This document shows positions 9,096-57,434 of a stretch of DNA of 64,000 bases, one piece after another (position 1 is the first letter of the stretch; the number at the start of each line of letters is the position of its first letter). The translations under genes were made by a program, and so were the position numbers. Location of the stretch: the NCBI GenBank assembly GCA_017478625.1, contig JAFVDF010000016.1:62001-126000 (forward strand), in the 5' to 3' direction. Source of the DNA: Alloprevotella sp. (GTDB lineage Bacteria > Bacteroidota > Bacteroidia > Bacteroidales > Bacteroidaceae). Below the pieces are notes generated by a model. It searched no databases. It was not told where the DNA came from and saw only the letters and a program-made list of their open reading frames with translations.

Positions 9096-9221
9096 AAATC
9101 GGATTATGGCGCAGGAAAATTCCATAATGCGATGAGCGGATTGCATAATCGGATTTTTAGATTGCATACTGCGTTTTTTCTGCGCCATTATGCCACCGGC
9201 CGACTGCATTATGCCCTGTGT
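9096..9221. repeat. Array 1: six 21-bp phased repeats
   Basis: The core CAT(T/A)ATG-like motif recurs with its first base at 9102, 9123, 9144, 9165, 9186 and 9207, exactly 21 bp apart. Flanks often read ATTG before and CGGA or GCG after the core. Only the core and the spacing are kept; units differ at many other positions. The array lies between the terminator hairpin and a GTTAA/TTAAC dyad. Confidence 0.85.
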
Positions 9222-9222
9222 C

Positions 9223-9238
9223 GTTAAGATAATTTAAC
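9223..9238. promoter_or_regulatory. GTTAA/TTAAC dyad closing element 1
   Basis: GTTAAGATAATTTAAC begins 9 bp after the last array core. The reverse complement stands 9 bp from the first core of array 3 at 49292-49307, so both sequence and distance are kept. Its function is unknown. Confidence 0.55.
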
Positions 9239-9554
9239 AAATCGTTCCGATGTCAATTCTTTTCGCGGTCTCGGACCTGTATGCAGTTTCTTTAAGGTTG
9301 TCGTGCCGCTTCGCGTACTTTTTGACGGGAAAAGCCCTTTTCGTTTCTCCTACCCATAGTTTCTCCTCCCATTGACCGTACCTGCTCCTCAGAAAAAGGC
9401 GGGTTGAATGCGGTCCAATACTCCAAAGTACGTGGGCCCCAAACTGGTCCGCGAGGGTTGTAAGCCAGAGGGTCTGCAGCCCTTTGCGAGGCTTCTGTAG
9501 GTGCGTGGAATAGATTTATGGCTTCAGGTTGCAGACGGAACGCAAAGATTTACG

Positions 9555-9562
9555 TAAATTTG
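9555..9562 (+). promoter_or_regulatory. -7 box of the MFS-GT-SpoIID-AmpG operon
   Basis: TAAATTTG fits TAnnTTTG and sits 30 bp before ATG 9592, with a TTGC at 9529-9532, 22 bp upstream. Confidence 0.5.
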
Positions 9563-9591
9563 AAACCGAAAATTCTAAACAATCAATAATC

Positions 9592-11022
9592 ATGACAACT
9601 GAAACTATTACCAAAACACTACGCGACAACGCCGTTGCGCGCTGGACAGCCCTTGTGCTGTTGGCTGCGGCTATGTTTTTCGGCTACATCTTCGTAGATG
9701 TGCTTTCGCCGCTTAAGGATTTGCTTCAAGAACAGCGTGGCTGGGATTCGAATGCATTTGGCCATTTTGCGGGCTCAGAGACCTTTCTGAATGTTTTTGT
9801 ATTCTTCCTGATCTTTGCCGGTATCATACTGGACAAAATGGGCGTGCGATTTACGGCCATCCTGTCCGGCCTGGTAATGTTCATAGGTGGCGCTATCAAT
9901 TACTATGCAGTAAGCGAAATGTTTGCCGGTTCTGCATTGGAACAGACTATTGACGGCTGGCTGAATCTGCCGGAAACGTGGTGGAACATTACTCCGTTCT
10001 ACGTAGGGATGCCTGCCAGTGCCAAACTCTCCGCAGTGGGCTTTATGGTTTTTGGCTGCGGTGTGGAAATGGCCGGTATCACAGTGAGCCGTGGTATAGT
10101 GAAATGGTTCCGCGGTAAGGAGATGGCTCTCGCTATGGGCCTCGAAATGGCCATTGCACGTATTGGCGTGGCCGTCGTGATGGTCGGTTCGCCTCTCATC
10201 GCCAAGCTGGGTGGAAATATCTCCGTTTCACGCCCCGTCGCATTCAGTGTGTTGCTCCTGTTGATAGGACTTATCAGTTTTATCACCTATTCCTTTATGG
10301 ATAAGAAACTGGAAACGCAGGAAGGAAATACGGAAGAGAAAGACGATCCCTTTAAGATCAGCGATCTCAAATATATATTTACCTCACGGGTCTTTTGGCT
10401 CGTTGCCTTGCTCTGTGTGCTCTATTACAGCGCTATATTCCCCTTCCAGAAATATGCGGTGAATATGTTGCAATGTAACTTGGGTTACACGGCAGATCAG
10501 GCCGGTCTGGTCTTTTCCGTATTCCCGCTCGGTGCAGCAGCCATTACTCCGTTCCTAGGTAATTTCCTTGACCGCAAAGGTAAGGGGGCCACGATGCTTA
10601 TGCTGGGCGCTTTGCTGATGATAGTATGCCATCTGTCGTTTGCATTCCTTGTGCCTGCAACGCAGAGTACAGTGCTGACGCTGGCCAGTATCGTATTGCT
10701 CGGTATCAGCTTCTCGTTGGTTCCTGCAGCCCTTTGGCCCAGTGTTCCCAAGTTGGTAAAACCACAGCTCATAGGTAGCGCGTACGCCGTCATATTCTGG
10801 ATTCAGAATATCGGGCTCTACGCATTCCCCATGATTATCGGTGCCGTGCTCGTGGCAGTGAATCCGGGTCAGGAAGACCCTCTGAAACTCAACTACACCG
10901 TTCCGATGTGTATATTTGCCAGTCTGGGCGTCTTTGCCCTTATTCTGGGCCTGTTGCTTAAGGTAGAAGATCGCCGGAAGCATTATGGGCTGGAAGAACC
11001 CAATATCAAGAAAGAAAATTAA
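9592..11022 (+). CDS. MFS transporter, first of a tandem pair
   Basis: A 476-residue inner membrane carrier with about 12 hydrophobic segments and a charged central loop around KKLETQEGNTEEKDD. The A-motif-like loop between helices 2 and 3 reads LDKMGVRFTA, repeated in the C-half as LDRKGKGATM. The protein start is ATG 9592 (MTTETITKTL) rather than the upstream frame opening at 9529, because the -7 box would fall inside the longer form. The next gene is a paralogue (shared LSPL, LDKMG and final HYGLxxPNI). The substrate is not evident; the operon suggests a cell-wall-derived compound. Confidence 0.85.
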   Translation: MTTETITKTLRDNAVARWTALVLLAAAMFFGYIFVDVLSPLKDLLQEQRGWDSNAFGHFAGSETFLNVFVFFLIFAGIILDKMGVRFTAILSGLVMFIGGAINYYAVSEMFAGSALEQTIDGWLNLPETWWNITPFYVGMPASAKLSAVGFMVFGCGVEMAGITVSRGIVKWFRGKEMALAMGLEMAIARIGVAVVMVGSPLIAKLGGNISVSRPVAFSVLLLLIGLISFITYSFMDKKLETQEGNTEEKDDPFKISDLKYIFTSRVFWLVALLCVLYYSAIFPFQKYAVNMLQCNLGYTADQAGLVFSVFPLGAAAITPFLGNFLDRKGKGATMLMLGALLMIVCHLSFAFLVPATQSTVLTLASIVLLGISFSLVPAALWPSVPKLVKPQLIGSAYAVIFWIQNIGLYAFPMIIGAVLVAVNPGQEDPLKLNYTVPMCIFASLGVFALILGLLLKVEDRRKHYGLEEPNIKKEN

Positions 11023-11036
11023 GAACCACTAAGAAA

Positions 11037-11066
11037 GCAAACGCTCCCCGGTGTGGGAGTGTTTGC
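11037..11066 (+). terminator. Hairpin between the two MFS genes
   Basis: GCAAACGCTCCC pairs with GGGAGTGTTTGC over 12 bp with one G-T, loop of 6. Few T follow, and the next gene starts 18 bp later, so it is more likely an attenuator or an mRNA-stabilising stem than a full stop. Confidence 0.65.
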
Positions 11067-11083
11067 TTATTGTATCGTCTGAT

Positions 11084-12430
11084 ATGACTGCCCGAAAACT
11101 CAACGACTCCGTTCTGGCTCGCTGGAGCGTTCTGCTGATAGTGTCGTTCACTATGATGTTTGGCTACATCATAACCGACATCCTTTCCCCCTTGGAGACT
11201 ATGCTCGAAGCCCCTTATGCCGCAGGTGGATTGGGCTGGAGTAGTACCGAATACGGATTATATAGCGGGGCCTACGGATTCTTCAATGTGTTCCTGCTCA
11301 TGCTCTTTGTGAGCGGGCTCGTATTGGACAAGATGGGCGAACGCTTTACGGGGACGCTGGCTTGCCTGCTTATGGTAGTAGGCGTATTCACGAAATATTA
11401 TGCCGTAGCCTTTGTGTCGCCGGAAGCGGTGACCTCATTCGGTTTCTCCCTCTTCGGAGGCGACGGCACGGGCCTGCGTACTCAGGTGCTTATGGCGTCG
11501 GCCGGTTTCGCCCTCTTCGGCGTCGGTTGCGAGATGGTGGGAATCAGCATCAACAAGGTGATGGTAAAATGGTTTACCGGACACGAAATTGCGCTGGCCA
11601 TGGGTTTTCAGGTGGCTATGGCACGAATCGGCACCGTCGTGGCGTTGAGCCTTAGCCCTAAGATTGCCACCCACTGGTCCTTATCTGCGCCCTTATTGGT
11701 CGGACTTGTGCTCGTCTGCATCGGACTGATGATATACCTTGTCTATGGTGTGATGGACTGCAAGCTGGAGCGTCAGCTGAAAAGTACGGTTGATGAGAGC
11801 GAAAAGTTCCATGTGCGCGATATTCTTCTTACGCTGTCGAGCCGTGGCTTCTGGCTGGTAACCCTCATCTGCCTCTTTTTCTATTGTGGCATACGTCCGT
11901 TCCTCAAATTTGCCAGCAAGCTGATGGTTGTCAAATATGGCATTGATCCGGAAACAGCAGGTATTATCGTGGCGCTATTACCCTTTACCGCCATACCTCT
12001 TACTCCGACATTCGGTTACCTTATTGACCGTTTCGGTAAGGGCGCATCAGTCATGATAGCCGGTACTGCAATGCTCACATTGAGCCACTTCTGTTTTGCG
12101 CTTCCACTCCACTCGCCCGCCGTGGCCATAATCGTGATTATCATCTTGGGCGTGGCCTTTTCACTTTTGCCTAGTGCGCTCTGGCCCAGCATACCCAAAA
12201 TTGTTCCTTTGAAGCGTCTGGGAACGGCATACAGTATGGTGTTCTATATCCAGAATATTGGCTTGACACTTGTGCCTATCGGTATAGGCTATATCAACGG
12301 GCAAGACCCGAGTTTCACTACCGCCATGACAATCTTCACCGTGCTCGGCTCACTGGGCATAGTATGCAGCATCTTGTTGCTACATGCAGACAAAAAAGCG
12401 CATTATGGGCTGCAGAATCCCAATATTTAG
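11084..12430 (+). CDS. MFS transporter, second of a tandem pair
   Basis: A 448-residue paralogue of the preceding carrier with 12 predicted membrane segments. Shared stretches include FGYIITDILSPLE near the N-terminus, LDKMGERFTG in the loop after helix 2, LIDRFGKGASVM in the second half, and the closing HYGLQNPNI. I chose ATG 11084 (MTARKLNDSV): the upstream frame opening at 11051 lies inside the hairpin, and the N-terminus then aligns with the first paralogue. The 28-bp gap to the next gene indicates one operon. It may form a pair with the first carrier or differ in substrate. Confidence 0.85.
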   Translation: MTARKLNDSVLARWSVLLIVSFTMMFGYIITDILSPLETMLEAPYAAGGLGWSSTEYGLYSGAYGFFNVFLLMLFVSGLVLDKMGERFTGTLACLLMVVGVFTKYYAVAFVSPEAVTSFGFSLFGGDGTGLRTQVLMASAGFALFGVGCEMVGISINKVMVKWFTGHEIALAMGFQVAMARIGTVVALSLSPKIATHWSLSAPLLVGLVLVCIGLMIYLVYGVMDCKLERQLKSTVDESEKFHVRDILLTLSSRGFWLVTLICLFFYCGIRPFLKFASKLMVVKYGIDPETAGIIVALLPFTAIPLTPTFGYLIDRFGKGASVMIAGTAMLTLSHFCFALPLHSPAVAIIVIIILGVAFSLLPSALWPSIPKIVPLKRLGTAYSMVFYIQNIGLTLVPIGIGYINGQDPSFTTAMTIFTVLGSLGIVCSILLLHADKKAHYGLQNPNI

Positions 12431-12458
12431 ACGCTCTGACCCCCTTAAATCGTAAAAG

Positions 12459-14882: not shown

Positions 14883-14885
14883 AAA

Positions 14886-16199: not shown

Positions 16200-16202
16200 G
16201 CG

Positions 16203-17504
16203 ATGAAAAGATACGAACATCCATCTAATGAATCCACCACGGTACGCTCCTCACGCAATGCATGGTCGTGGGTGCCTACGCTATATTTTGCAGAGGGCAT
16301 ACCCTATGTGGTAGTGATGACTATCGCCGTGGTAATGTACAAAAGACTGGGACTGAGCAACGAGCAGATAGCCCTCTATACCTCTTGGCTCTATCTGCCG
16401 TGGGTCATCAAGCCTTTCTGGAGTCCTATAGTAGAGTTGCTGGGTTCTAAAAGGCGCTGGATTCTGATTACGCAGTTGTTGTCGGGTGTGGCAATGGGTG
16501 GCGTGGCACTCACGATAGAGGCCCCGTATTATTTGCAATTGACCTTGGCCTTTTTCTGGCTTATGGCATTCAGTTCCGCTACGCACGATATTGCGGCGGA
16601 CGGCTTTTATCTCTATGCGCTTAGCGAGCACGAGCAGAGCCAGTTTGTAGGCATACGCAGCACGTTCTATCGCATTTCCATGATAGCCGGGCAGGGCATT
16701 CTCATAGCACTGGCTGGCAATCTGGAAGCCTTTACCCGAAATCCGAGCCGGGCCTGGGGAATTACTTTCGGTCTGACCGCCACGCTCTATATCGTTACGT
16801 TTATATATCATTACTTCATTTTGCCGAGGCCTAATACTGACGGCCCGCGCGAGGTACCGCGCAGCGAGTTGTTCAACGACTTTCTGGATACTTTCATATC
16901 TTTTTTTCAGAAACCACACATCCTTTCGGCTCTTGCCTTTATGCTGTTGTTTCGTCTGCCCGAGGCGTTGCTCACAAAGATATGCCCGCTGTTTCTTCTG
17001 GACGGGGTAGATGACGGAGGGCTTGCCCTGACAACGGCTGAAGTAGGGCTGGTGCAGGGAACCATAGGAGTAATAGGCCTTACGATAGGTGGCATACTCG
17101 GCGGGCTCTATGTAGCCCAATTTGGCTTTAAGAAAAGTCTTTGGCTTATGGTGGGAGCCATCACGATTCCCGATGCAGTGTATATTATCCTTGCCTACTG
17201 GCAACCTACAAGTATTGCGCTGATCAGCACCTGTATCGGGTTGGAACAGTTTGGCTACGGATTTGGATTTACAGCCTACATGGTGTTCCTTATGTACTTT
17301 GCGCAGGGCGAGGCAAAGACTGCGCACTACGCTTTCTGTACGGGATTTATGGCTCTGAGTATGATGCTCCCGGGTATGGTGGCCGGCTACTTGCAGGAGA
17401 CTATCGGGTACCTTAACTTCTTTATTGTAGTGATGGTCTTGACCGTGCTGACCTTTATCTCCTCAGCACTTATCCGCGTGGACGATAATTACGGAAAGAA
17501 ATAG
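16203..17504 (+). CDS. AmpG-like muropeptide permease (MFS)
   Basis: A 433-residue inner membrane carrier with about 12 membrane segments. The N-terminal stretch FAEGIPYVVVMTIAVVMYKR, then LYLPWVIKPFWSPIVE and the following DIAADGFYLYAL, match the AmpG branch of MFS, whose members import anhydromuropeptides for recycling. It begins 3 bp after the SpoIID gene and ends the operon. The context with a SpoIID enzyme supports uptake of peptidoglycan fragments. I give no symbol because AmpG-like carriers in Bacteroidetes also include MurNAc permeases. Confidence 0.8.
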   Translation: MKRYEHPSNESTTVRSSRNAWSWVPTLYFAEGIPYVVVMTIAVVMYKRLGLSNEQIALYTSWLYLPWVIKPFWSPIVELLGSKRRWILITQLLSGVAMGGVALTIEAPYYLQLTLAFFWLMAFSSATHDIAADGFYLYALSEHEQSQFVGIRSTFYRISMIAGQGILIALAGNLEAFTRNPSRAWGITFGLTATLYIVTFIYHYFILPRPNTDGPREVPRSELFNDFLDTFISFFQKPHILSALAFMLLFRLPEALLTKICPLFLLDGVDDGGLALTTAEVGLVQGTIGVIGLTIGGILGGLYVAQFGFKKSLWLMVGAITIPDAVYIILAYWQPTSIALISTCIGLEQFGYGFGFTAYMVFLMYFAQGEAKTAHYAFCTGFMALSMMLPGMVAGYLQETIGYLNFFIVVMVLTVLTFISSALIRVDDNYGKK

Positions 17505-17520
17505 CCCTATGCCGTGAGCC

Positions 17521-17583
17521 AGTTCACGGTATGAAATGTACAGTTCACAGTGTGAAATTCATATTTCACACTGTGAACTTGCT
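17521..17583. repeat. Three-unit 21-bp palindromic repeat with a 17-bp stem
   Basis: Units begin at 17521, 17542 and 17563, each with a TTCAC(A/G)..TGAA half-palindrome at the same offset. Units 2 and 3 form a perfect stem: AGTTCACAGTGTGAAAT (17542-17558) with ATTTCACACTGTGAACT (17563-17579), loop of 4. It sits between the converging AmpG-like and recQ genes and could terminate both. The palindrome TTTCACACTGTGAA recurs at 57438-57451 beside another 21-bp array. Confidence 0.75.
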
Positions 17584-17600
17584 TTTTATATAAGGTTGTG

Positions 17601-19502: not shown

Positions 19503-19517
19503 GGAGTGCAGGGCCTT

Positions 19518-27093: not shown

Positions 27094-27100
27094 CTAAACT

Positions 27101-31676: not shown

Positions 31677-31698
31677 AATGCCCGCACTGAGAGCCGGA

Positions 31699-31824
31699 AA
31701 ATTCCATTATGCGACGCGCAAATTGCATTATGGAATCGGAAAATTGTAGTATTGAATTTCAAAATTGCATAAGGGAATTTTGAAATTGCATAAGCGAATC
31801 GGAGCGTATCATTATGCGCCAACA
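31699..31824. repeat. Array 2: six 21-bp phased repeats
   Basis: Core first bases fall at 31705, 31726, 31747, 31768, 31789 and 31810, exactly 21 bp apart. Units 2-5 begin AAATTG and share GAAT after the core; unit 3 has a degenerate core (TAGTATT). It lacks the promoter, short RNA and GTTAA dyad of elements 1 and 3. Confidence 0.87.
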
Positions 31825-31846
31825 TTTTCTGACTGAAAATGTTGGC
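31818..31846. other. Perfect 12-bp hairpin closing array 2
   Basis: GCCAACATTTTC pairs with GAAAATGTTGGC, loop TGACT, starting inside the last repeat unit. There is no T-run, so it is not a typical terminator. Its place next to the array parallels the hairpins of arrays 1 and 3. The rest of 31850-32050 shows no gene. Confidence 0.7.
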
Positions 31847-32055
31847 GAAAGGTGCTGATAGGGCGAATGGTAGCTGAATCGTGGGAGGCAAAAGGACAGG
31901 GCGAGGAGGCTTCTTCCTGTTGCGAGGCAACAATTCCATTATGTAATCTGTGCCTGAGGACTGTACTGGGGTACTTCCCCCTTGGCTAATTGCGGAATGG
32001 CAGTATGGCTGGAGGCAGAAGCAGGACTGCAGACCCGCATTGCAGGTTGCTATAT

Positions 32056-46017: not shown

Positions 46018-46018
46018 A

Positions 46019-46309: not shown

Positions 46310-46396
46310 TTGCCAGGAAAATTATTTCTTCTCGTATTTGTCTGTACAAAAATACAGAAATACCGCAGTTTGTCTATGCGCTCAGATATAAAAATA

Positions 46397-46425
46397 AAAT
46401 GGGAACCCTTTTGGCTCCCATTTTT
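46397..46425 (-). terminator. Terminator after the small exported protein gene
   Basis: AAAATGGGA and its partner TCCCATTTT pair around a GG/CC extension, with T- and A-runs outside. It ends the 46449-46952 gene. Confidence 0.75.
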
Positions 46426-46448
46426 AATTATCCTGGTGGAGGACACTG

Positions 46449-46952: not shown

Positions 46953-47256
46953 AAAGTAATAAGTTTAAAGTTAAATGTGTGAGTTCTTCCAATCCTACTT
47001 ATGGTGGAATTCTGACGCGAAGTTAGTCAAAGGAATTACCCCCCCCCATTTTTTACAATGTTTAACTAAAAACATTCGTGCGTTAATTAGATTGGCGCAC
47101 ACATGTGTATTGCGATGTTAAATGTTAAAGGAATTCACGGGCGGGCCCTTTTTATGGCCAGACCCGAATAGGGAAAAAGAAAAGTGGCGGAACTTTTTCG
47201 TAGTTCCGCCACTTGTACAGACCTGTACGGCTGTACTTCTTTCTGTTTGTATATGC
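46953..47256. other. Upstream region with poly-G tract and shared module
   Basis: No gene. It holds nine C at 47039-47047 (G on the coding strand), a TTTAAC block after it, GTTAAATGTTAAAGGA at 47117-47132, and the terminator of the next gene at 47182-47214. Confidence 0.6.
47182..47214 (-). terminator. Terminator after the outer membrane barrel gene
   Basis: AAGTGGCGGAACT pairs perfectly with AGTTCCGCCACTT over 13 bp, loop of 7. Confidence 0.8.
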
Positions 47257-47886: not shown

Positions 47887-47919
47887 AACAATTTAGTATT
47901 TATAGTGTAGAATGAATCC

Positions 47920-48963: not shown

Positions 48964-49291
48964 TGTAAAAAGTTTTATAATAATTGAATGTATTTGTTGA
49001 ATTATCTCTCCAAATCGTACCTCAGTAAGCGCGATTCGAAAACAAAGGTGCAACATTTCATTTTTACCCCCCCCATTTTACAAACTTTAACAGTTCAAGC
49101 AGGTTTAACTATTTATTCCGAGTGTTCTGTAATGGGAAATTGTTAAATGTTAAAGGACTCCTTCGGTTGGATAATGCAGTCCGTCTGCAAGTTTGGGGGC
49201 CAATTTGAATAGAAAATGGATTTTTGTTAGAAGCCTCATCCGCCAGCAGGTCCGCTTATTGAGGTAAATTATTTTGACATTTGGCGCAAAG

Positions 49292-49307
49292 GTTAAATTA
49301 TCTTAAC
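49292..49307. promoter_or_regulatory. GTTAA/TTAAC dyad of element 3
   Basis: GTTAAATTATCTTAAC is the reverse complement of the dyad at 9223-9238 and stands 9 bp from the first array core, as in element 1. Confidence 0.55.
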
Positions 49308-49310
49308 AGT

Positions 49311-49436
49311 TTGTTCCATAATGCAATCGTCTGGAGGCATTATGGAATAGAAAAAAAGCCTTATGGAATCTGAAAATCAGCTTATGAAATCTGTCGGTTG
49401 CATAAGCCGATTTCTCTGCGCCATAATCGGAATTTT
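49311..49436. repeat. Array 3: six 21-bp phased repeats
   Basis: Core first bases at 49317, 49338, 49359, 49380, 49401 and 49422, exactly 21 bp apart. Cores include CATAATG, CATTATG and CCTTATG, often followed by GAATC. In reversed orientation it aligns unit for unit with array 1. The frame that is open through array 1 is closed here by TAG in unit 2. Confidence 0.87.
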
Positions 49437-49440
49437 CAAC

Positions 49441-49473
49441 AAAAAAGGGCGGTTTCATCGATAGAAACCGCCC
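49441..49473 (-). terminator. Intrinsic terminator in repeat element 3
   Basis: GGGCGGTTTC and GAAACCGCCC around a 7-nt loop, with six A on the plus strand that give a U-tract in the minus-strand RNA. It differs from the element 1 terminator by one loop base. Confidence 0.8.
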
Positions 49474-49514
49474 TATAAGTCTATTGCAGTATGGCGCGAT
49501 GTGCTTCTCTTAGG
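49441..49514 (-). ncRNA. Predicted short RNA of repeat element 3
   Basis: Runs from the predicted start after TAAATTTG to the terminator, about 70 nt, matching the predicted RNA of element 1 in length and 3' end. Confidence 0.35.
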
Positions 49515-49520
49515 CTATCA

Positions 49521-49551
49521 CAAATTTACAAAAACTTCCGGACCTGCGCAA
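49521..49551 (-). promoter_or_regulatory. Promoter-like pair in repeat element 3
   Basis: On the minus strand, TTGC (49548-49551), 19 bp, TAAATTTG (49521-49528), identical in boxes and spacing to element 1. Confidence 0.5.
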
Positions 49552-49966
49552 GGGGGCTTTTTTGTGCTTTTCCGCGAAAAATTTTGACAAACGAGGAGTG
49601 TTTCCTGTCGTTGCTTGCTGTGGTTCCGCCGACAGATGGTACGGGGTGCTTGTGCGAGTATGGCATCGGCGTTTTCCGACCCGATGTGAACCGAACCCAT
49701 TATGGAGGCGCCGTGGGAGTGCTTGGAGTCGTGCGGTTCTGCCGTGGTCTTTTTTGCGAGAACGGTGGGCAGGGCGCGTGAGAGCAGTGTAGGAGCGTTG
49801 TGGAAATGAGGTAAAATCGTAGGACTGCCTGCGACGGGCTGATGCGTCCGTTGTAGCAGCCGACAGCTGGCAGATACACGCCACACCGTGGCTATAGTCG
49901 CTCAGTCGGTATAGGACTTATGCTGAGGGCTCGCTCCCACGAACCGGCGGGCCTTATCTACGCAAA

Positions 49967-49992
49967 AAATCCTCTGTTTAGTCAGAGGATTT
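49967..49992 (-). terminator. Terminator after tRNA-Gln
   Basis: AAATCCTCTG pairs with CAGAGGATTT, loop of 6, followed on the minus strand by further T. It lies 6 bp past the encoded CCA. Confidence 0.8.
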
Positions 49993-49998
49993 CTCGGT

Positions 49999-50072
49999 TG
50001 GTTGGGGTACCCGGATTCGAACCAGGAAAGGCAGGACCAGAATCTGCAGTGTTACCATTACACCATACCCCA
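49999..50072 (-). tRNA. tRNA-Gln(CUG) with encoded CCA
   Basis: Reads on the minus strand from TGGGGTA to TACCCCA-A-CCA. The acceptor stem is perfect, the D-loop has GTGTAATGGTAAC, the anticodon loop is TTCTGGT (anticodon CTG) and the T-arm holds GGTTCGAATCC. The 3' CCA appears to be encoded. The anticodon stem GCAGA/CCTGC has an A-C mismatch next to the loop. Confidence 0.93.
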
Positions 50073-50109
50073 ATCGGAGTCATTCGGGGGTTCCTTCCCA
50101 AATGCGGAG

Positions 50110-50141
50110 CAAAAATAGAGTCTTCCGAAATAAATAGCAAA
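50110..50141 (-). promoter_or_regulatory. tRNA-Gln promoter
   Basis: On the minus strand, TTTG (50138-50141), 20 bp, TATTTTTG (50110-50117): both boxes match the Bacteroidetes consensus, about 38 bp before the tRNA. Confidence 0.75.
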
Positions 50142-50185
50142 TAATTTTTGAGAAAAAGTGAAATCTGTTCTGTTTTTGCGTGGGC

Positions 50186-52246
50186 TTATTCTGTTTTTTT
50201 GCCCGCCGATGCGGTCTTCGTGGCGAACGGATGGCGGAACGTACAACCCTCGCGCCAGCGGCTACAACCGTATGCGGTGCGTCCTTTGATTACTTTGCCC
50301 TCGCCACAGACCGGACATTTCATGCCGGCGCGTATGCTTTTTTTATTGCCGGAAGTTCCGGATTTGCGCGTCGGCTTGGTGGCCGAGGCCGTGCGGGCCG
50401 TGTGTATGACGGTGCCGTTATTCTCTCGCAGCACATCCAGCACAATCCGGCTGATCATATCTTTCATTTCGCCTATAAAAGTGGCGGCATCGTAATCGCC
50501 ACGCTCTATCTGTCGGAGTTTGCGCTCCCATTGGCCGGTAAGTTCTACGCTTTTGAGCAATTCCTCCTTGATGACGGCTATCAGGGCTGTTCCCGTATCT
50601 GTCGGCATAAGGGCTTTCTTCGCTTTCCGGATGTAGTTGCGCCGGAAGAGCGTCTCAATGATTGCCGCTCGCGTAGAAGGACGTCCAATGCCGTTTTCTT
50701 TCAGCGCGTCGCGCAGGTCTTCGTCTTCCACTTGCTTACCCGCTGTTTCCATGGCACGGAGTAGGGTGGCTTCCGTATAAGGCTTCGGTGGCTGGGTCTG
50801 CTTCTGTGTGAGCGTGGGCTTATGGGGGCCACTTTCGCCTTTGTGAAATGCGGGCAGTGTGCGTTCCTCTTCTTTTGCGGCCTCATCCTCTTCCTCTGTT
50901 AGGGCCTTTTCCCGTTCGAAAACTATGCGCCAGCCAGATTGCAGAATCTGTTTTCCCGTAGCGCGGAAAGAGGTTTCTTCCACGCGCCCGGTTACCGTCG
51001 TCGTAGAGAACAGGCAGTCGGGGTGGAAGATGGCTATGAACCGACGGGCGATAAGGTCGAACACTTTGGCTTCCATATCGGGCAGGCCTGCGGGCTTATG
51101 CCCTGTGGGGATTATAGCGTGGTGGTCGGTCACTTTCTTTGTGTCAAATACCTTTTTGCTCTTCCGGAGTTTCTGTCCGCGCAGGGGCTGGAGTAGTTCG
51201 CCGTACCTGTCGTTCAGACTGTTAAGGATTTGTGCACATTTCGGGTAGATGTCATCGGGCAGATAGGTAGTATCGACGCGCGGATAGGTTGTGATCTTCT
51301 TTTCGTAGAGACTCTGAATCAGTTGGAGCGTCGTATCGGCCGAAAAACCAAACTTCTTGTTACATTCCACTTGTAGCGAGGTCAGGTCAAACAGTCGTGG
51401 AGGAGCCTCGGAGCCGTCTTTTTGGCTGACGGATACTACTTCAAATGGCTTTCCCTCAATGCGTCGGAGCGCTTCACGGCCCTCCTCTTCACTTAGAAAG
51501 GCATTTTTCAGGGCTTTATTATTGCCGGTGTCGCCCTCTGTGTCGGTCTGTGCGGTAAAAAGCACTTTGCGATATTCCGTAGCCAGCACCCAGTAGGGCG
51601 TAGGCACAAACGAATCGATTTCCTGTTGCCGTCGTACAATCAGAGCCAGCGTGGGAGTTTGTACACGGCCCACGGAGAGTGGCGTAGCCCCCCGTTCGCG
51701 CTGACCAAACTTGAGTGTGTAGAGTCGCGTAGCATTCATTCCCAGAATCCAGTCGCCTATGGCGCGGCAAAGACCGGCTTCATAGAGCCCATTATATTTT
51801 TCTTCCGCTTGCAGGTTGTCGAAGCCCTCGCGAATGGCTTCGTCGGTCATAGAAGATATCCACAGCCGTTTTACAGGCACCTGTGCGCCCGTATGTTGCT
51901 TCACCCAGCGCTGAATAAGTTCACCTTCCTGTCCGGCATCGCCGCAATTTACGATTAGCTCTGCGCTCTTAAACAGTCGCTTAATGGTGTCAAACTGTTT
52001 CTTTATGCCACGGTCGTTTTTCAGTCGTATGCCGAAGCGTGGCGGTAGCATAGGCAGTTGGCCGAGGCTCCAATGGTGCCAGGTCTCGGCGTAATCCTCG
52101 GGGTACTTGAGCTCGCAGAGATGTCCAAAGGTCCAAGTCACCTGGTAGCCGTTGCCTTCGATATACCCGTCGCGCATAGTGGTGGCTCCGAGTATGCGGG
52201 CAATGTCTCTCGCCACGCTAGGTTTTTCTGCAATACATACTATCAT
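50186..52246 (-). CDS. topB: DNA topoisomerase III
   Basis: A 686-residue type IA topoisomerase that relaxes and decatenates DNA through a covalent tyrosine link. The Toprim domain starts with VCIAEKPSVARDIA and has NCGDAGQEGELIQRW; the catalytic Tyr lies in KKITTYPRVDTTYLP; PLSVGRVQTPTLALIV marks domain IV. The C-terminus has one Cys4-type zinc finger (CPVCGEGKV...GCSRWREGC) and a basic tail. TopB copies also occur on mobile elements, but nothing around this one suggests transfer. The FecE-like gene upstream ends 9 bp before its start. Confidence 0.95.
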   Translation of the reverse strand: MIVCIAEKPSVARDIARILGATTMRDGYIEGNGYQVTWTFGHLCELKYPEDYAETWHHWSLGQLPMLPPRFGIRLKNDRGIKKQFDTIKRLFKSAELIVNCGDAGQEGELIQRWVKQHTGAQVPVKRLWISSMTDEAIREGFDNLQAEEKYNGLYEAGLCRAIGDWILGMNATRLYTLKFGQRERGATPLSVGRVQTPTLALIVRRQQEIDSFVPTPYWVLATEYRKVLFTAQTDTEGDTGNNKALKNAFLSEEEGREALRRIEGKPFEVVSVSQKDGSEAPPRLFDLTSLQVECNKKFGFSADTTLQLIQSLYEKKITTYPRVDTTYLPDDIYPKCAQILNSLNDRYGELLQPLRGQKLRKSKKVFDTKKVTDHHAIIPTGHKPAGLPDMEAKVFDLIARRFIAIFHPDCLFSTTTVTGRVEETSFRATGKQILQSGWRIVFEREKALTEEEDEAAKEEERTLPAFHKGESGPHKPTLTQKQTQPPKPYTEATLLRAMETAGKQVEDEDLRDALKENGIGRPSTRAAIIETLFRRNYIRKAKKALMPTDTGTALIAVIKEELLKSVELTGQWERKLRQIERGDYDAATFIGEMKDMISRIVLDVLRENNGTVIHTARTASATKPTRKSGTSGNKKSIRAGMKCPVCGEGKVIKGRTAYGCSRWREGCTFRHPFATKTASAGKKTE

Positions 52247-52255
52247 TTCGTAGGT

Positions 52256-53032
52256 CTATGGGGTGGTGGGATCAGAAGAATGAGTCAAATCGCAAGGGGC
52301 TTCCAGATTCAGAAACCGTATCAGTGTGCCGTCGGCCGAAAGGGCTGAGGGCGTGCCCGTCAGCAGTTGGTCTGGTGAAAGTAGCCAGCATTGGTCTGCA
52401 GAACGGATCGCGTTGCCTACGTCGTGGGTGCTTACGAGAATGGCCTTATGCTCTTCGTGGGCCAGACGCGCCAGCAGGTCCATCAGCCGTTTCTTTGCTC
52501 TGAAATCCAAGTAGGCTCCCGGTTCGTCCAATAGGATGACGGGAGTTTGCTGGGACAAGGCCTTGGCTATCATTACGCGCTGACGCTCGCCGTCGGACAA
52601 ACTGCTCAGAAGACGGCGCGAAAGGTGGGACACCTCCGTGGCTTCCATGGCCTGGCTTACGATCTGACGGTCTTCCTCTGAGATACGCCCGGAGAAGGGG
52701 GTGTAAGGCATCCGTCCCATTTCCACAATTTCACGTACCCTAAGGAAACCCGTATCGGGCAGGCTCGTGAGCACTACGGCCACAGTCTGTGCAAGTTGTC
52801 GGGGCGTGAAATCCGCAAGGGGCTTGGTGCCGTAGCAGATTTCCCCAGAGATAGGAGCCAGAAGGCCCGAGAGCGTGCGCAACAGCGTCGTCTTTCCGCA
52901 CCCGTTAAGCCCGATGAGCGCCGTTAATGCCGAGGCGCTCAGCTGCGCGCTAAGGCCTTGGCCTACTAGGTGCTGTCGGCCTGCGTTGCGGTAGCCTGTA
53001 GAAAGACGGGAGATGCTGAGCGGGGAGTTCAC
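52256..53032 (-). CDS. ABC transporter ATPase, FecE/BtuD type (orphan)
   Basis: A 258-residue ATPase with Walker A GLNGCGKTT (41-49), the Q-loop region after TLSGLLAP, signature LSDGERQR, Walker B VILLDEP and the switch His in STHDVGNAI. It belongs to the group that powers uptake of iron-siderophores, heme or cobalamin. No permease or binding protein gene is adjacent: a sialidase lies upstream (12 bp) and topB downstream (9 bp), all on the minus strand. Its partner must lie elsewhere. Confidence 0.88.
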   Translation of the reverse strand: MNSPLSISRLSTGYRNAGRQHLVGQGLSAQLSASALTALIGLNGCGKTTLLRTLSGLLAPISGEICYGTKPLADFTPRQLAQTVAVVLTSLPDTGFLRVREIVEMGRMPYTPFSGRISEEDRQIVSQAMEATEVSHLSRRLLSSLSDGERQRVMIAKALSQQTPVILLDEPGAYLDFRAKKRLMDLLARLAHEEHKAILVSTHDVGNAIRSADQCWLLSPDQLLTGTPSALSADGTLIRFLNLEAPCDLTHSSDPTTP

Positions 53033-53044
53033 AAGACGAGCGGA

Positions 53045-54364
53045 TTAGCGTGTGGCGGGCTGGAGTGCGTATTTTCCAGAAGTTATTTCTTCCAAAGACA
53101 GGTTGCGGTAAATCAGGTCATAGCCATCACCGATTTTTACCTGCTGTGTGTAGGATTCTTCATAAAAGAAACCGATTGTACCATCCTGCTGCAAGCACAT
53201 AGTAGAGTAAGCGCTGGTCTGTGTGCTTATGCGACAGACATTTTCTACGGGCCAGTGGTCTGCGATGTCTGCAGGCGTCGGGTCGGCCGGTATTTCTTTG
53301 TACACAATAGATACATCCGCGCGCGTGTTAGCGGCTGGAAGCGATTGAAGCAACAGCCATACGGGAGTATTGTCGGCCCGGCGGATTGCGGACAACAGGA
53401 GTACGTCGCCGTTGCAGGCATTACCTCCCAGATGCAAGCCTTCCGGAAATGCGTCGGAGTCGGCTTGCTGTTGCCACGAGCCTTCCGCAGTGGTGGCGTC
53501 GGTATATTTATATATGTTATAATATCGGCCGTGGGCTTTTCTGCTGGAGAGGAGTACATCGCCGTTGGGCAGTTCTTCGCATTTAGGCTCGTTTCCGTTG
53601 GCTACAGCCAGTTGTGCGCCGTCGGCACCCACGCCCAGCGGATGCCAGGTATGCCCCAAGTCGTCGCTATATAGCACGTAGTTACCCGAATAGGTGCAAA
53701 AAGGAGCATAGATACGGTAATGGCTCCCTACCTTTATCCGACTACTTTGGCACAGTTCTCCGCTGCCCACGAAAGCGGCCTTAGCCGATGGGGGAATAAT
53801 GGAATAGACGGATTCGGTAATATCCTCAGGCGGAAAGAATGTCCAATGGCCCTGCGCATCGGACGTGCCTCGAAACTGTGCACATCGGAGCGTCTTCTCG
53901 AAGCCATCTGTCACGTCGGAGAACGGCCAAGCCACTCCACCGGCCGCACATAAGGTGAGCAAGGTGCCTGTCTCGCGGTCGCACACTATGGCTGCATCGC
54001 CGAAACCATAGGTAAAATCATTGTAGATACGTCCGTCGGTCCGTCGGTCGGGACTTCCCGTGCCACGGATTACGGTAAAGGGTTCACTCCAAGTCCGTCC
54101 CTGATCATCACTCGTTCGCGCCAGAATGTCGCAACGGCCAAATCCGATATCGGTCCCGCATTTCAGCCAGCCTGCCAGAGCAATTAGCTGCCCGCTCGGA
54201 TGCTGGTCCAGAGAAGGAATACGGTACGGATAGTCGGAAGCGGTGTTGGCAAAGAGCGTCTGGCTCTTCCGGACCGGTGCTTCTGCAGGGGTCTGAGCAT
54301 AGCATAATGCGGTTGTAGAAAAGAAGGCTACTGTCAGCAGAGCGGAGCGTTGTATGAGGTTCAT
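53045..54364 (-). CDS. Secreted sialidase (GH33)
   Basis: A 439-residue exo-sialidase with Sec signal peptide (to CYAQ). The FRIP-type motif is YRIPSLDQHP, followed by the acid/base region GTDIGFGRCDI. Asp boxes are SDDQGRTW and SDDLGHTW. The Glu in ANGNEPKCEEL and later Arg residues complete the six-blade active site in which Arg residues bind the sialate carboxylate. It releases terminal sialic acid from host glycans and would complement the GH92 enzymes in N-glycan foraging, although it lies 22 kb away. No sialic acid catabolic genes are seen in the window. Confidence 0.9.
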   Translation of the reverse strand: MNLIQRSALLTVAFFSTTALCYAQTPAEAPVRKSQTLFANTASDYPYRIPSLDQHPSGQLIALAGWLKCGTDIGFGRCDILARTSDDQGRTWSEPFTVIRGTGSPDRRTDGRIYNDFTYGFGDAAIVCDRETGTLLTLCAAGGVAWPFSDVTDGFEKTLRCAQFRGTSDAQGHWTFFPPEDITESVYSIIPPSAKAAFVGSGELCQSSRIKVGSHYRIYAPFCTYSGNYVLYSDDLGHTWHPLGVGADGAQLAVANGNEPKCEELPNGDVLLSSRKAHGRYYNIYKYTDATTAEGSWQQQADSDAFPEGLHLGGNACNGDVLLLSAIRRADNTPVWLLLQSLPAANTRADVSIVYKEIPADPTPADIADHWPVENVCRISTQTSAYSTMCLQQDGTIGFFYEESYTQQVKIGDGYDLIYRNLSLEEITSGKYALQPATR

Positions 54365-54402
54365 CGGGCGTGGTTTTTGAAAATAGAGGCTTACAATTAG
54401 AG

Positions 54403-54410
54403 CAAAATTA
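54403..54410 (-). promoter_or_regulatory. -7 box for the sialidase gene
   Basis: TAATTTTG on the minus strand, 38 bp before the start codon. The array-like motif TTGCATTATACAA lies just upstream at 54426-54438. Confidence 0.45.
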
Positions 54411-54443
54411 TGCTTTTTCGTTTTATTGCATTATACAATTTTC

Positions 54444-54451
54444 TAAATTTG
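54444..54451 (+). promoter_or_regulatory. -7 box for the M48 protease gene
   Basis: TAAATTTG, 38 bp before ATG 54490, in an AT-rich run. The -33 element is unclear. Confidence 0.45.
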
Positions 54452-54489
54452 TGGCTGAGTTGACGAAAACAAATATTAAATCAAACGAT

Positions 54490-55305
54490 ATGAAAAAGAT
54501 TTTTACCAGTTTGCTTTTTGCAACACTGATTACCCTTACGGGATGTGGCACTTCAAGCAAGGTTCCACTCACCGGGCGTACCCAACGGCTCCTTGTCTCG
54601 GATGCGCAGGTGCTTAGCCTAAGTAGCGAACAATATACCTCCTATATGAAGACCGCTAAGGCTAGCACAGACAAGAAAAACACCGAGATGGTGAAGCGCG
54701 TGGGCCAGAAGCTGGCCACGGCCGTGGAGAAATATCTCACTGCAAACGGCTATGCAGAAGACGTGAAGAACTTCTCGTGGGAATTCAACCTTGTACAGGA
54801 CGCTACGGCCAATGCATTTTGTATGCCTGGCGGGAAAATTGTCGTTTACGAGGGCCTGTTGCCCATCACCAAGGATGAATCGTCGCTCGCCATAGTGCTG
54901 GGTCACGAAATCGCCCACGCAGTGGCTCGCCATAGCGCCGAACAACTCACCAGTCAGCTCAAAGCGCAATATGGAGCGCAGGCAGCGAATTATATCTTAG
55001 GCGCAGTGGGCGGTGGCCAGTGGCAACAGATCGGCAATGCCGCATTTAGTTTCGGAAGCAATAGTCTTTTGCGCAAATTCTCGCGTTCCAACGAATCGGA
55101 GGCCGATTATATGGGTCTGGTGTTCGCTGCAATGGCGGGATACAACCCTGCTGTAGCCGTAGATTTCTGGCAAAGGATGGCAAGCAACAGTTCTTCCAGT
55201 ACGCCCGAGTTCTTTAGCGATCACCCCAGTGATGCCACTCGTATCGCTAATATTCAGAGGTGGCTACCCGAGGCTCAGAAATACTATACGGGTACGTCTA
55301 AGTAG
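54490..55305 (+). CDS. M48-family metalloprotease lipoprotein (BepA/LoiP-like)
   Basis: A 271-residue zinc peptidase. The lipobox is TLTGC (Cys19), then the family's VPLTGRTQRLLVS entry. The metal site is HEIAH (139-143) with Glu202 in NESEADYMG as third ligand. This group cleaves misfolded outer membrane proteins in the periplasm. The frame opens at 54370, but ATG 54490 starts the signal peptide. No tetratricopeptide domain follows, so it is closer to LoiP than BepA. Confidence 0.92.
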   Translation: MKKIFTSLLFATLITLTGCGTSSKVPLTGRTQRLLVSDAQVLSLSSEQYTSYMKTAKASTDKKNTEMVKRVGQKLATAVEKYLTANGYAEDVKNFSWEFNLVQDATANAFCMPGGKIVVYEGLLPITKDESSLAIVLGHEIAHAVARHSAEQLTSQLKAQYGAQAANYILGAVGGGQWQQIGNAAFSFGSNSLLRKFSRSNESEADYMGLVFAAMAGYNPAVAVDFWQRMASNSSSSTPEFFSDHPSDATRIANIQRWLPEAQKYYTGTSK

Positions 55306-55332
55306 GCGTAACCCTATTGCATAGATTGATAA

Positions 55333-55365
55333 TAGCCGCTTATGTCCTGAAAACATAAGCGGCTA
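55333..55365 (+). terminator. Terminator after the M48 gene
   Basis: TAGCCGCTTATGT pairs with ACATAAGCGGCTA over 13 bp, loop of 7, followed by CTTTT. Confidence 0.8.
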
Positions 55366-55419
55366 CTTTTATGTCATAAGCGTACGCTCCGACCTACGGC
55401 TTGCATAGGCCGAGAAGAG

Positions 55420-56025
55420 TCAGATTTCTTCTACGCGTACGATGTTGTGCATAACAGCAAATATCGTAAGCGCACCGATGGACTTTGTGCCGAGTTTTTG
55501 CGTAAGGTTTTTACGGTGGGTTATAATGGTGGTAAGTTCTACATTCAGCTTGTCGGCAATTTCCTTATTCAGATAGCCTTTTACTATAAGGCGGAGTACC
55601 TCTTTCTCCCTCTCAGTGAGCGGAGACTTGGTTTCGTCTTTGGGGGGCATTATGCCTTTCTGCCGTGCATTAGGGATTTGCTGGTGTCCCTGTTGCATAC
55701 GAACTAACAGGTGCTTTACAAATTCCGATTCGGGTACCTGCATGTCAATTTGCCTGAAGCCATCGGGCAGTTGGCCAGAGGTGTCGCCTTGTACCAGTAC
55801 GAAAGTGCGTTGCTGGACGGACTTATAGAACGTTACCTGCTCGAGGAGCGCCCGGCTGTCTATGAAATAATGTAAAAAGTCGGGCTTGGGATGTTGTGCG
55901 AGCATCTCCTCGGTTGAGGAAAATATGAAAAAAGAACCTTGGGGTACAATGCGCAGGAATAGAGCCTGCAACCCAATCCCTACAAGGGCATTGTGCGACA
56001 CAATGGCTATATGCTTTTGGGACAT
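55420..56025 (-). CDS. LuxR-type regulator with degenerate receiver
   Basis: A 201-residue protein. The first ~120 residues resemble a response-regulator receiver ([16 protein letters not shown]), but the two acidic residues normally after strand one are Ser-His, so regular phosphorylation is doubtful. The C-terminus is a LuxR helix-turn-helix ([25 protein letters not shown]). I prefer ATG 56025 (MSQKHIAIV) over 56070 because the extra His/Pro-rich residues do not belong to the fold. It follows argR closely on the same strand. Targets unknown. Confidence 0.82.
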
Positions 56026-56076
56026 GGCTGTGGGATGGCCTGAGGGATGTATGGGGTGAGAGGGGTGCATGGTTTT

Positions 56077-56577
56077 CTATTCGTTTTCGAGTATGGATTG
56101 AAAAGCCGTCAATATGCCAGCCAGTTCAGACTTAAAGGTTTCGCGCGGTGCATTCTCTGCGCAGACGACGAGGATAGTGTCGTGGCCCGCCACCGTACCG
56201 ATGACGGTCGAGAGATGCTCTTGGTCTATCTTGTGGGCCAGTCCTGCAGCAAATCCCGGGCGGGTTTTGACGACGGCCAAGCCTTGTGCAAACTGAACGC
56301 CTCTTACGCTGGAGTTTTCCACATATTCAAATGCCTGATCGTGTTCTACAATGCGCTGGTAGCCTTTGTTCTCCGGCAAGACGTAACGGTCGCCCTCCAC
56401 CGTGTGGACCTTGGCCACGCCCAGGCGCTTGAGGTCTGAGGAGATAGTGGGCTGGGTTGCTTTTATGCCACTGCGCTTCAACTCTCTGGAAAGTTCTGCC
56501 TGATTGCCGATGCGTGAGGTCTGGAGCAGGGTCCTTATGGCGTTCAACCGTTTGTCTTTCTTGTTCTTGGATGGCAT
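56077..56577 (-). CDS. argR: Arginine repressor ArgR
   Basis: A 166-residue hexameric regulator of arginine metabolism. The N-terminal winged helix reads IGNQAELSRELKRSGIKATQPTISSDLKRLG, cited here as domain position 23-53. The C-terminal oligomerisation and ligand domain ends with GTVAGHDTILVV. The usual pair GDDT that binds arginine is Gly-His132-Asp133, an unusual change at the ligand site. No arg biosynthesis genes are adjacent; the LuxR-type gene follows in the same direction. Confidence 0.93.
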   Translation of the reverse strand: MPSKNKKDKRLNAIRTLLQTSRIGNQAELSRELKRSGIKATQPTISSDLKRLGVAKVHTVEGDRYVLPENKGYQRIVEHDQAFEYVENSSVRGVQFAQGLAVVKTRPGFAAGLAHKIDQEHLSTVIGTVAGHDTILVVCAENAPRETFKSELAGILTAFQSILENE

Positions 56578-56612
56578 ACGTATATGAGAAGGTCTCCGAG
56601 GAGAACTTTTTG

Positions 56613-56620
56613 CAAAGTTA
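56613..56620 (-). promoter_or_regulatory. -7 box for argR
   Basis: TAACTTTG on the minus strand, 35 bp before the argR start. The region between argR and tdk is AT-rich, but I did not find a clear ARG-box palindrome. Confidence 0.45.
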
Positions 56621-56673
56621 GTTTTTTAGTCAATATATATTATACTATCAAGTCGTTGGAATTGATTTTTTTT

Positions 56674-56681
56674 TACTTTTG
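56674..56681 (+). promoter_or_regulatory. -7 box for tdk
   Basis: TACTTTTG, 29 bp before ATG 56711, with a weak GTTG about 15 bp upstream. Confidence 0.5.
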
Positions 56682-56710
56682 CTATGTGATTTTCTCAGAA
56701 ACCCAAGCCT

Positions 56711-57322
56711 ATGCAGTCATTGTTCCAAGAAGAAACCAGTTTGCGCGGACGTATTGAAGTCATCTGCGGTTCTATGTTTTCAGGCAAGACAGAAGAACTC
56801 ATACGCAGACTTCGCAGGGCGGAATTTGCCCGTCAGCGCGTGGAGATATATAAGCCTACGGTCGATACGCGTTATTCAGAGGAGGACGTAGTCTCTCACG
56901 ACAGCAAACACATCCCTTCCACGCCCGTGGACTCCCCTCAGAGCATACTGCTTCTGGCTTCCGAGGCGCAAGTAGTAGGCATTGACGAAGCGCAATTCTT
57001 TGACGATTCGCTCGTGCAAGTATGCAACGAACTGGCCAACCGCGGAAAGCGCGTAATAGTTGCTGGCCTCGATATGGATTTCCAGGAGAAACCGTTTGGT
57101 CCGATGCCTCAGTTGCTTGCCATTGCCGAGGAAGTGACAAAAGTGCACGCCATTTGTGTCCGGTGTGGTAGTTTGGCCCACATATCTCATCGTATAGTGG
57201 CCGGAGAGAAACAAGTAATGCTCGGCGAGAAGCAGGAGTACGAACCGCTATGTCGGCGTTGCTACTGCGAAGTAAGGGCCAAGGCGAAAGCCGAAGTAGC
57301 CGACACGCCCGCAGAAGAGTAG
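56711..57322 (+). CDS. tdk: Thymidine kinase (type II)
   Basis: A 203-residue enzyme that phosphorylates thymidine for salvage into dTMP. P-loop [14 protein letters not shown] at 20-33, Walker-B-like [14 protein letters not shown], the lasso-loop region after [12 protein letters not shown], and the four zinc Cys in CVRCG and CRRC. The N-terminal [17 protein letters not shown] and the acidic C-terminal tail are lineage extensions. ATG 56711 is in reach of the promoter and gives the family length. Confidence 0.95.
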
Positions 57323-57350
57323 CCGTAGCCGGAAGAACTGTTAAAAAACT

Positions 57351-57434
57351 ATATGCCATAAGCCCGTTTGCTTGTGGCATATTTTGTTCTGTCCGTGGTA
57401 TAAGCCTTTCTAAAAATGGCCTTATGCCCTTTCC
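57351..57434. repeat. Array 4: four 21-bp phased repeats next to a palindrome
   Basis: Cores start at 57357 (CATAAGC), 57378 (CATATTT), 57399 (TATAAGC) and 57420 (CCTTATG), each 21 bp apart. The palindrome TTTCACACTGTGAAA follows at 57438-57452, about where a fifth unit would lie. It is weaker than arrays 1-3. Confidence 0.6.

What the first reader, a model, noticed from the sequence alone, without database searches (positions are those of the whole stretch)
9096..57434. Exactly 21-bp phased CATTATG arrays, six units each, at three intergenic loci
Direct reading: the core recurs at 9102+21n, 31705+21n and 49317+21n for six positions each, with no slip in the period though most other bases differ. 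Each six-unit array abuts a strong hairpin. 21 bp is two helical turns, so all cores lie on one DNA face, as in iteron or nucleoprotein-nucleating sites. The period is also seven codons, so a heptad-coding origin must be excluded. Inference: a chromosomal binding array for an unknown protein, perhaps a titration, centromere-like or domain-boundary site.
Basis: partly seen in the sequence, partly recalled or inferred. Interest (0 to 1): 0.88.

Follow-up and report, generated by a model that had tools for sequence, protein, structure and literature searches.

The report
Evenly spaced, phased palindrome arrays
This gut bacterium and several relatives carry, at intervals of roughly ten to twenty thousand bases, short rows of palindromes set exactly two DNA turns apart, with a different palindrome in different species, which looks like an undescribed way of marking or dividing the chromosome.

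Summary
Three intergenic arrays of six CATWATG-centred units lie at exact 21-bp steps, though only 8 of 18 cores match exactly. They are part of a genome-wide set: 23 arrays in 801 kb of this genome and 61 in 791 kb of a sister, Alloprevotella sp. RGIG4801, where arrays have five sharp-edged units without compensatory pairing.

Three results go further. Arrays avoid each other: 0 of 35 intervals below 7 kb here, 9.8 expected; 1 of 55 below 4 kb in the sister, 15.5 expected. Here a second palindrome, TTCACASTGTGAA, usually in threes, lies inside decayed CATWATG arrays in exact register; its 21-bp pair occurs in no other of 58 genus genomes. Other Alloprevotella carry other palindromes at 21 or 22 bp.

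Best reading: landing sites for a DNA-binding protein stacked two turns apart, kept about once per 10-20 kb, perhaps as chromosome-domain anchors. Mobile cassettes remain a serious rival. The protein was not found; spacing was not significant in G064; orthologous positions are only weakly shared.

The parts
9095..9220 (.). Array 1: six 21-bp units (class B, inside a ~300-bp element), between a TonB-receptor gene and an MFS gene
8938..9238 (+). Full repeat element around array 1; about 11 copies found in the own genome
8980..9010 (+). Promoter-like TTGCAC...TAAATTTG conserved in the element (the Bacteroidetes TTG / TAnnTTTG promoter pattern is recalled, not from a call)
   Evidence: alignment of 10 copies
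9055..9089 (+). Terminator-like hairpin with T run; RNA fold z -3.6 against shuffles for 9025-9095
   Evidence: stem kept with a different sequence in 3 of 10 copies
9223..9238 (-). GTTAAGATAATTTAAC, conserved right end of the element, lies one unit step beyond the array
17519..17581 (.). Second-palindrome triplet TTCACASTGTGAA at 21-bp steps (first unit has two mismatches), with a weak CATWATG-like unit in register at 17498-17518
31698..31823 (.). Array 2: six units (class A, no element flanks) between convergent GH92 and Proton_antipo_M genes; the sister has an array at the same place
31817..31847 (+). Hairpin beside array 2, 13-bp perfect stem
49289..49435 (.). Array 3: six units at 49310-49435 plus an in-register GTTAAATTATCTTAAC unit at 49289-49309
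49292..49594 (-). Inverted copy of the same ~300-bp element as at 8938-9238
49447..49473 (-). Hairpin of that element copy
57392..57454 (.). Hybrid array: a CATWATG-like unit (57413-57433, score 15.4) and a TTCACACTGTGAA unit (57438-57450) with centres exactly 21 bp apart; the preceding unit scores 0.0. A predicted minus-strand ORF overlaps it.

Best explanation
These are chromosomal landing arrays for one or more dimeric, sequence-specific DNA-binding proteins. Shown: each unit is a palindrome of about 13-17 bp; units repeat every 21 bp (22 bp in some families of other species); unit number is nearly fixed; outside the units sequence conservation drops to background; paired positions do not compensate each other; arrays keep a minimum distance of several kilobases; and one palindrome can occupy positions of another in the same register. 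Inferred: dimers sit side by side on one face of the helix and stabilise each other, making a stiff or bridging nucleoprotein block, and one such block about every 10-20 kb anchors or insulates a stretch of chromosome. The sequence of the palindrome changes between species together with its reader, while register and spacing are kept.
For: Register: pair spacing 124 at 21 bp against at most 9 at any spacing from 8 to 89 bp that is not a multiple of 21, in 340 kb of the sister; steps 247/250 and 116/117. Sharp five-unit block: 15.7-24.1 bits per unit inside, 1.8-3.8 outside. No compensation: within-unit complementary fraction equals expectation, whole-array 0.612 against 0.624. Spacing: (no draw of 5000 reaches the observed value), and 9 arrays of mixed families in 100 kb of G080, CV 0.31, P 0.0035. 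In-register mixing: 40 of 102 in-phase flank positions score as CATWATG units beside 17 second-palindrome arrays, against a mean of 0.7 and a maximum of 4 for 20 other phases; 32 of 35 strong CATWATG-like units near such sites lie at multiples of 21. Palindromes found in one genome only. A spacing of order 10 kb matches the size of topological domains of E. coli and Salmonella as stated in passages of PMC10642903.
Against: No binder, no binding data and no expression data. Spacing is not significant in G064 (6 arrays, P 0.87 for CV) and, for CATWATG arrays alone in the own genome, only for the minimum (P 0.003) and not for the CV (P 0.11). Arrays are rare or absent in 100 kb of G003, G081, G061 and G062, so the function cannot be essential to the genus. 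Orthologous positions are only weakly shared once intergenic length is controlled (P 0.047, 0.17, 0.15). About 11 arrays of the own genome ride in a conserved ~300-bp element, which looks more like a spreading repeat. Array 2 as RNA folds better than shuffles (z -3.1). Twenty of 84 arrays overlap an ORF of my simple caller.
Confidence: 0.45

Rival explanations
1. Mobile cassettes: non-autonomous elements whose transposase or recombinase binds the palindromes, spread by copying, with the distance rule produced by a target-immunity effect.
For: Palindromes found in one genome only, many copies; near-identical triplets with shared linker words at distant places; a 300-bp element with conserved ends in about 11 copies; most sister arrays are missing at the mapped place in the own genome (19 of 22 without a CATWATG array). 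Insertion of a 3 x 21-bp cassette at a fixed point of a unit would keep register.
Against: No shared flank beyond the units in array-only copies and no target duplication seen; unit numbers hardly vary; different palindrome families in G080 also keep apart, whereas target immunity as recalled for Tn7 and Mu is family-specific (only 9 arrays). The cross-family distance in the own genome (0 of 16 within 7 kb, 4.8 expected, P 0.0026) is weaker evidence than it looks, because the triplets lie inside old CATWATG arrays. Y1 transposase genes do not track arrays.
Confidence: 0.27
2. Operator arrays of ordinary transcription factors: each palindrome family is a large regulon.
For: Palindromic 13-17 bp sites spaced by two turns are typical of cooperative repressors (recalled); some arrays lie close to start codons.
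Against: Arrays also lie between convergent genes (16 of 84) and only 8 of 84 between divergent genes; dozens of full-length arrays per genome that avoid each other are not what regulons look like; several families per species.
Confidence: 0.13
3. RNA-level elements: tandem hairpins in 3' ends that stabilise or terminate transcripts.
For: Each unit can form a short hairpin; strong hairpins lie beside the three window arrays; array 2 folds with z -3.1.
Against: No compensatory pairing across 61 arrays; array 1 folds no better than shuffles (z -1.3); conservation is of sequence and register; spacing between arrays is chromosomal.
Confidence: 0.07
4. REP/BIME-type repeats spread by a RAYT transposase.
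For: Intergenic palindromes, species-specific, in composite arrays and sometimes hybrid, as described for BIMEs in passages of PMC2817692.
Against: No Y1 transposase found in G000, G026 or G074; two in G003, where I saw no array in 100 kb (G000 and G026 are incomplete). BIMEs keep palindrome pairing by complementary changes; here they do not. Exact two-turn period and distance rule.
Confidence: 0.05
5. Remnant of a heptad-repeat protein gene.
For: 21 bp is seven codons.
Against: Mostly intergenic, palindromic sites, and 22-bp families in other species.
Confidence: 0.01

Closest known systems
REP / BIME repeats with RAYT transposases (passages of PMC2817692)
   Same: Intergenic palindromes, species-specific, in composite and hybrid arrays, proposed role in chromosome organisation
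   Different: No RAYT association, no compensatory changes, fixed two-turn period, nearly fixed unit number, arrays avoid each other
BrickBuilt MITE minisatellite of Porphyromonas gingivalis (abstract and sections 5, 7 (part 1) and 8 of PMC4596501)
   Same: Bacteroidales, intergenic, tandem short units, leader and tail segments, promoter-like parts
   Different: 23-bp units that are close copies, 1 to 22.8 of them, terminal inverted repeats of IS5 type; here units diverge except at the palindrome, and unit number is nearly fixed
Plasmid iterons and partition centromeres (recalled)
   Same: Short repeats spaced by whole helical turns for side-by-side protein binding
   Different: Those are one or few sites per replicon; here dozens to over a hundred per chromosome at a regulated distance
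parS / Noc sites of the ParB family (recalled)
   Same: Palindromes scattered over a chromosome; the half-sites of TTTCACASTGTGAAA recall parS
   Different: Single sites, not phased arrays; ParB_N genes are not multiplied in G080 or G064

Membership tests
REP/BIME with RAYT | RAYT (Y1) transposase gene in the genome, flanked by the repeats | tested here: not met
   none in G000 (58.9% complete), G026 (77%) or G074 (84%); one in G080 and in G064, flanks not examined; two in G003, which showed no array in 100 kb. Incomplete genomes limit this.
REP/BIME with RAYT | Palindrome pairing kept by compensatory change | tested here: not met
   61 arrays, observed pairing equals expectation (CATWATG family only)
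BrickBuilt-type MITE | Near-identical tandem units in variable number | tested here: not met
   five units in most sister arrays (40 of 61 detected with exactly five, 4-7 overall), linkers diverged
BrickBuilt-type MITE | Terminal inverted repeats and target duplications | tested here: inconclusive
   no shared flank for array-only copies; the 300-bp element has direct TGTCAA-type ends; intergenic DNA too diverged to show an empty site
ParB/Noc-type sites | A ParB paralogue for each palindrome family | tested here: not met
   one ParB_N gene in G080 and one in G064, each with several array families; none found in the incomplete G000 and G026
Heptad-coding repeat | Open frame with a 21-base period | tested here: not met
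   Arrays mostly intergenic; 22-bp families
Plasmid iteron or centromere | Located at a replication or partition locus | tested here: not met
   dozens of arrays spread along chromosomal contigs
Known RNA family | Match to an Rfam model | tested here: not met
   only a tRNA in the window at gathering thresholds
Tn7/Mu-type transposon end | Transposase gene and 22-bp non-palindromic end sites | not tested
   No search for TnsB or MuA was made

The most novel reading that the evidence does not exclude
A new class of bacterial chromosome-partitioning element: rows of palindromes phased at two helical turns, read by dimeric proteins that stack on one DNA face, maintained about once per 10-20 kb by selection on distance, with the palindrome and its reader turning over between species while register and spacing persist, in some arrays by unit-for-unit replacement inside the old array.
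Probability: 0.35. Interest if true: 0.93.

Novelty: categorically new. Interest (0 to 1): 0.85.

Why it matters
Bacterial chromosomes are thought to be divided into topological domains of order 10 kb, but DNA-encoded boundaries with such a spacing are not something I know of (recalled; not searched for exhaustively). If these arrays are such anchors, their sequence can be read straight from a genome, which makes the question of what sets domain boundaries testable. Turnover of the palindrome with conservation of register would also be a rare natural experiment in co-evolution of a DNA-binding protein with dozens of its sites at once.

Tried and rejected
Heptad coding: disfavoured. RNA or cruciform structure: no covariation in the CATWATG family, although array 2 alone folds better than shuffles. 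REP/RAYT. ParB paralogues. Phage origin or carriage: exact pair patterns of two palindromes gave 0 stretches in viral contigs; the three-core CATWATG pattern gave 5 viral stretches, all scoring low with the unit profile. Wider spread: the three-core pattern gave matches in 5 of 393 genomes of the order, with one other (G096) showing 14 in the reversed control; by eye these are ordinary tandem repeats. In one search the reversed control was 0 for G000 and G026 but 5 in G036 and 1 in G034. Two other genera of the family, 20 kb each: no 21- or 22-bp array, too little to conclude.

Orthology: of 22 sister arrays with both flanks mapped, 3 have a CATWATG array in the own genome; of 4 own arrays mapped, 3 have one in the sister. 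Counting both palindromes over adjacent-gene intervals, 3 of 11 against 2 of 122 (P 0.004), but P 0.047, 0.17 and 0.15 with minimum intergenic lengths (with a slightly different filter gave 3 of 11 against 2 of 158). Alignments of mapped places could not show a clean empty site.

Limits: the profile was trained on the same arrays it then scored, with reversed sequences as control; thresholds of the family-agnostic detectors were set after the first families had been seen; gene calls are a longest-ORF heuristic. In one search the intergenic filter dropped the G080 array at 87.2 kb and a possible one at 54.4 kb, and several G074 arrays; one of the two G061 hits (85.5 kb) is a tRNA. Literature: searches found nothing that describes such arrays in the open-access library; most listings were seen as titles and abstract starts only. 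Searches were for background.
Full report
1. What is there. The three arrays lie at the stated coordinates. Of the 18 cores, 8 match CATWATG exactly and the others keep the register. Pair spacing in the window peaks at 21 and 42 bp (12 and 7 pairs; 3 or fewer elsewhere from 8 to 59 bp). In the assembled genome 14 of 15 distinct places with two cores 11-41 bp apart are at 21 bp, with 19 exact pairs and 0 in the reversed control.

2. Two kinds of array. Loci 1 and 3 are inverted copies of a ~300-bp element found about 11 times in the own genome. Ten aligned copies share a left end with a promoter-like TTGCAC...TAAATTTG, a terminator-like hairpin whose stem persists with another sequence in three copies, the array, and a right end GTTAAGATAATTTAAC followed by TGTCAA. 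Read on the other strand the right end resembles a second promoter, TTGACA...TTAAATTATC, and lies in register with the units. Promoter readings are by recalled pattern only. Locus 2 has the array without these flanks.

3. Sister species. Among 58 genomes of the genus, exact 21-bp pairs number 97 in G026, 19 in G000, 1 each in G032 and G013, and 0 in the rest; the reversed control is 0 in G000 and G026, 5 in G036 and 1 in G034. G026 is Alloprevotella sp. RGIG4801, JAFUTC01, from roe deer reticulum, by matching contig lengths. In 791 kb of it I find 61 arrays, in 801 kb of the own genome 23 (at least four units, score at least 45; reversed control 0). Median identity of reciprocal best proteins is 78%.

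4. Anatomy. Alignment of the 61 sister arrays gives five units with 15.7-24.1 bits each and neighbours with 1.8-3.8 bits: a 105-bp block with sharp edges. The symmetrised unit reads AAATTGCATWATGCAATTT. A-tracts lie to the left in the first units and T-tracts to the right in the last. Complementary pairing within units and across the array equals expectation from column composition, so the palindromes are not kept as stems. Core variants are mainly of the type CATAAT[ACT] or [GTA]ATTATG, as if one half-site may decay.

5. Distance rule. In the sister, 55 intervals average 12.1 kb with CV 0.62; one is below 4 kb. Random choice among intergenic regions gives CV 0.95 and 15.5 below 4 kb, and none of 5000 draws reaches the observed values under three weightings. 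In the own genome CATWATG arrays alone give minimum 8.6 kb (P 0.003) but CV 0.70 (P 0.11). Adding the second palindrome (below) gives 39 arrays, 35 intervals, mean 19.5 kb, CV 0.51, none below 7 kb against 9.8 expected, not reached in 5000 draws. G080: 9 arrays in 100 kb, CV 0.31 (P 0.0035), minimum 5.2 kb (P 0.011). G064: 6 arrays, not significant.

6. A second palindrome in the same register. At some places where the sister has CATWATG arrays the own genome has TTCACASTGTGAA units, also 21 bp apart. In the held sequence there are 18 clusters: 16 with three units, one with two, one single. None was found in 791 kb of the sister with up to one mismatch. As a 21-bp pair it occurs 60 times in G000 and in none of the other 57 genus genomes (control 0). 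The triplets lie inside decayed CATWATG arrays: of 102 in-phase neighbouring positions 40 score above zero as CATWATG units, against a mean of 0.7 and at most 4 for the 20 other phases; 32 of 35 strong units near second-palindrome sites are at multiples of 21. So one palindrome has taken positions of another without loss of register. Some triplets share linker words, which points to copying.

7. Genus-wide. A detector for three palindrome centres at equal steps peaks at 21 bp in both genomes (27 and 56 places) and in G080 (5 in 100 kb), with 0-4 per contig for other steps from 15 to 30. A family-agnostic detector on intergenic DNA of eight other species (about 100 kb each) finds at 21 and 22 bp: G080 4 and 6, G064 4 and 2, G032 2 and 0, G074 2 and 0, G062 1 and 0, G061 1 and 1 (the latter a tRNA), G003 and G081 none; other periods are mostly 0, except G081 (5 at 16, 3 at 24) and single or double hits in G003, G064 and G074. 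At one orthologous locus of 28 species the counts are 3 at 21 and 3 at 22 against 3 in the 13 other periods together; in 18 other loci 4 at 21 against 4 in the other periods (no intergenic filter). The palindromes differ between the species seen; CAAACNATNGTTTG pairs number 83 in G080 and 0 in 57 others. Several species have more than one family.

8. Context. Of 84 arrays, 39 lie between tandem genes, 16 between convergent, 8 between divergent, 20 overlap a predicted ORF and one is at an edge. The simple gene caller over-extends ORFs, so the 20 are uncertain.

9. Mechanism. A palindrome without compensatory change is what a dimeric protein reads; a step of two turns puts the dimers on one face; a fixed small number of units and sharp edges suggest a complex of defined size; avoidance at several kilobases suggests that what matters is one site per stretch of chromosome. 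The spacing matches the order of 10 kb given for topological domains in passages of PMC10642903. This is inference; no binder is known. The main rival is spread of cassettes with an immunity-like distance effect. The orthology test does not decide.

10. Known relatives. REP/BIME repeats share most outward features, including hybrid arrays (passages of PMC2817692), but RAYT genes do not track arrays and pairing is not preserved. BrickBuilt differs in unit identity and number (PMC4596501). ParB-type genes are not multiplied. I therefore do not file the arrays under any of these. The rating 'categorically new' refers to the combination of phasing, distance rule and register-keeping change of palindrome; the function is unproven.

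Noticed in passing
window 8938-9238 and 49292-49594: The ~300-bp element looks like a small RNA gene: promoter-like box, about 50-80 transcribed bases, terminator hairpin, then the array and an opposed promoter-like end. No Rfam match in the window besides a tRNA.
   Followed up: partly
L191, L203, L219, L237, L263, L265, L283, L290 (JAKVOZ01, Bacteroidales UW_MP_BACTE7_1): An unrelated interspersed repeat with three to four CATAATGCCATTCT units at 21 or 22 bp steps in several contigs of one genome.
   Followed up: no
L193, L200-L202, L206, L216-L218, L226 and others (Prevotellaceae, Bacteroidales MAGs): Intergenic-looking microsatellites built of 7-bp words such as CATTATG/CATAATG, so that 21 bp is three words; a possible raw material for phased arrays.
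   Followed up: no
window 49999-52246: tRNA-Gln and a topoisomerase gene (Topoisom_bac, Toprim) are the neighbours of array 3.
   Followed up: no
window 4117-4150 and 4351-4384: A 34-bp direct repeat at 94% identity.
   Followed up: no
window 57657-57856 and 57786-57982: Overlapping internal repeat at 60% identity, within or near predicted ORFs.
   Followed up: no
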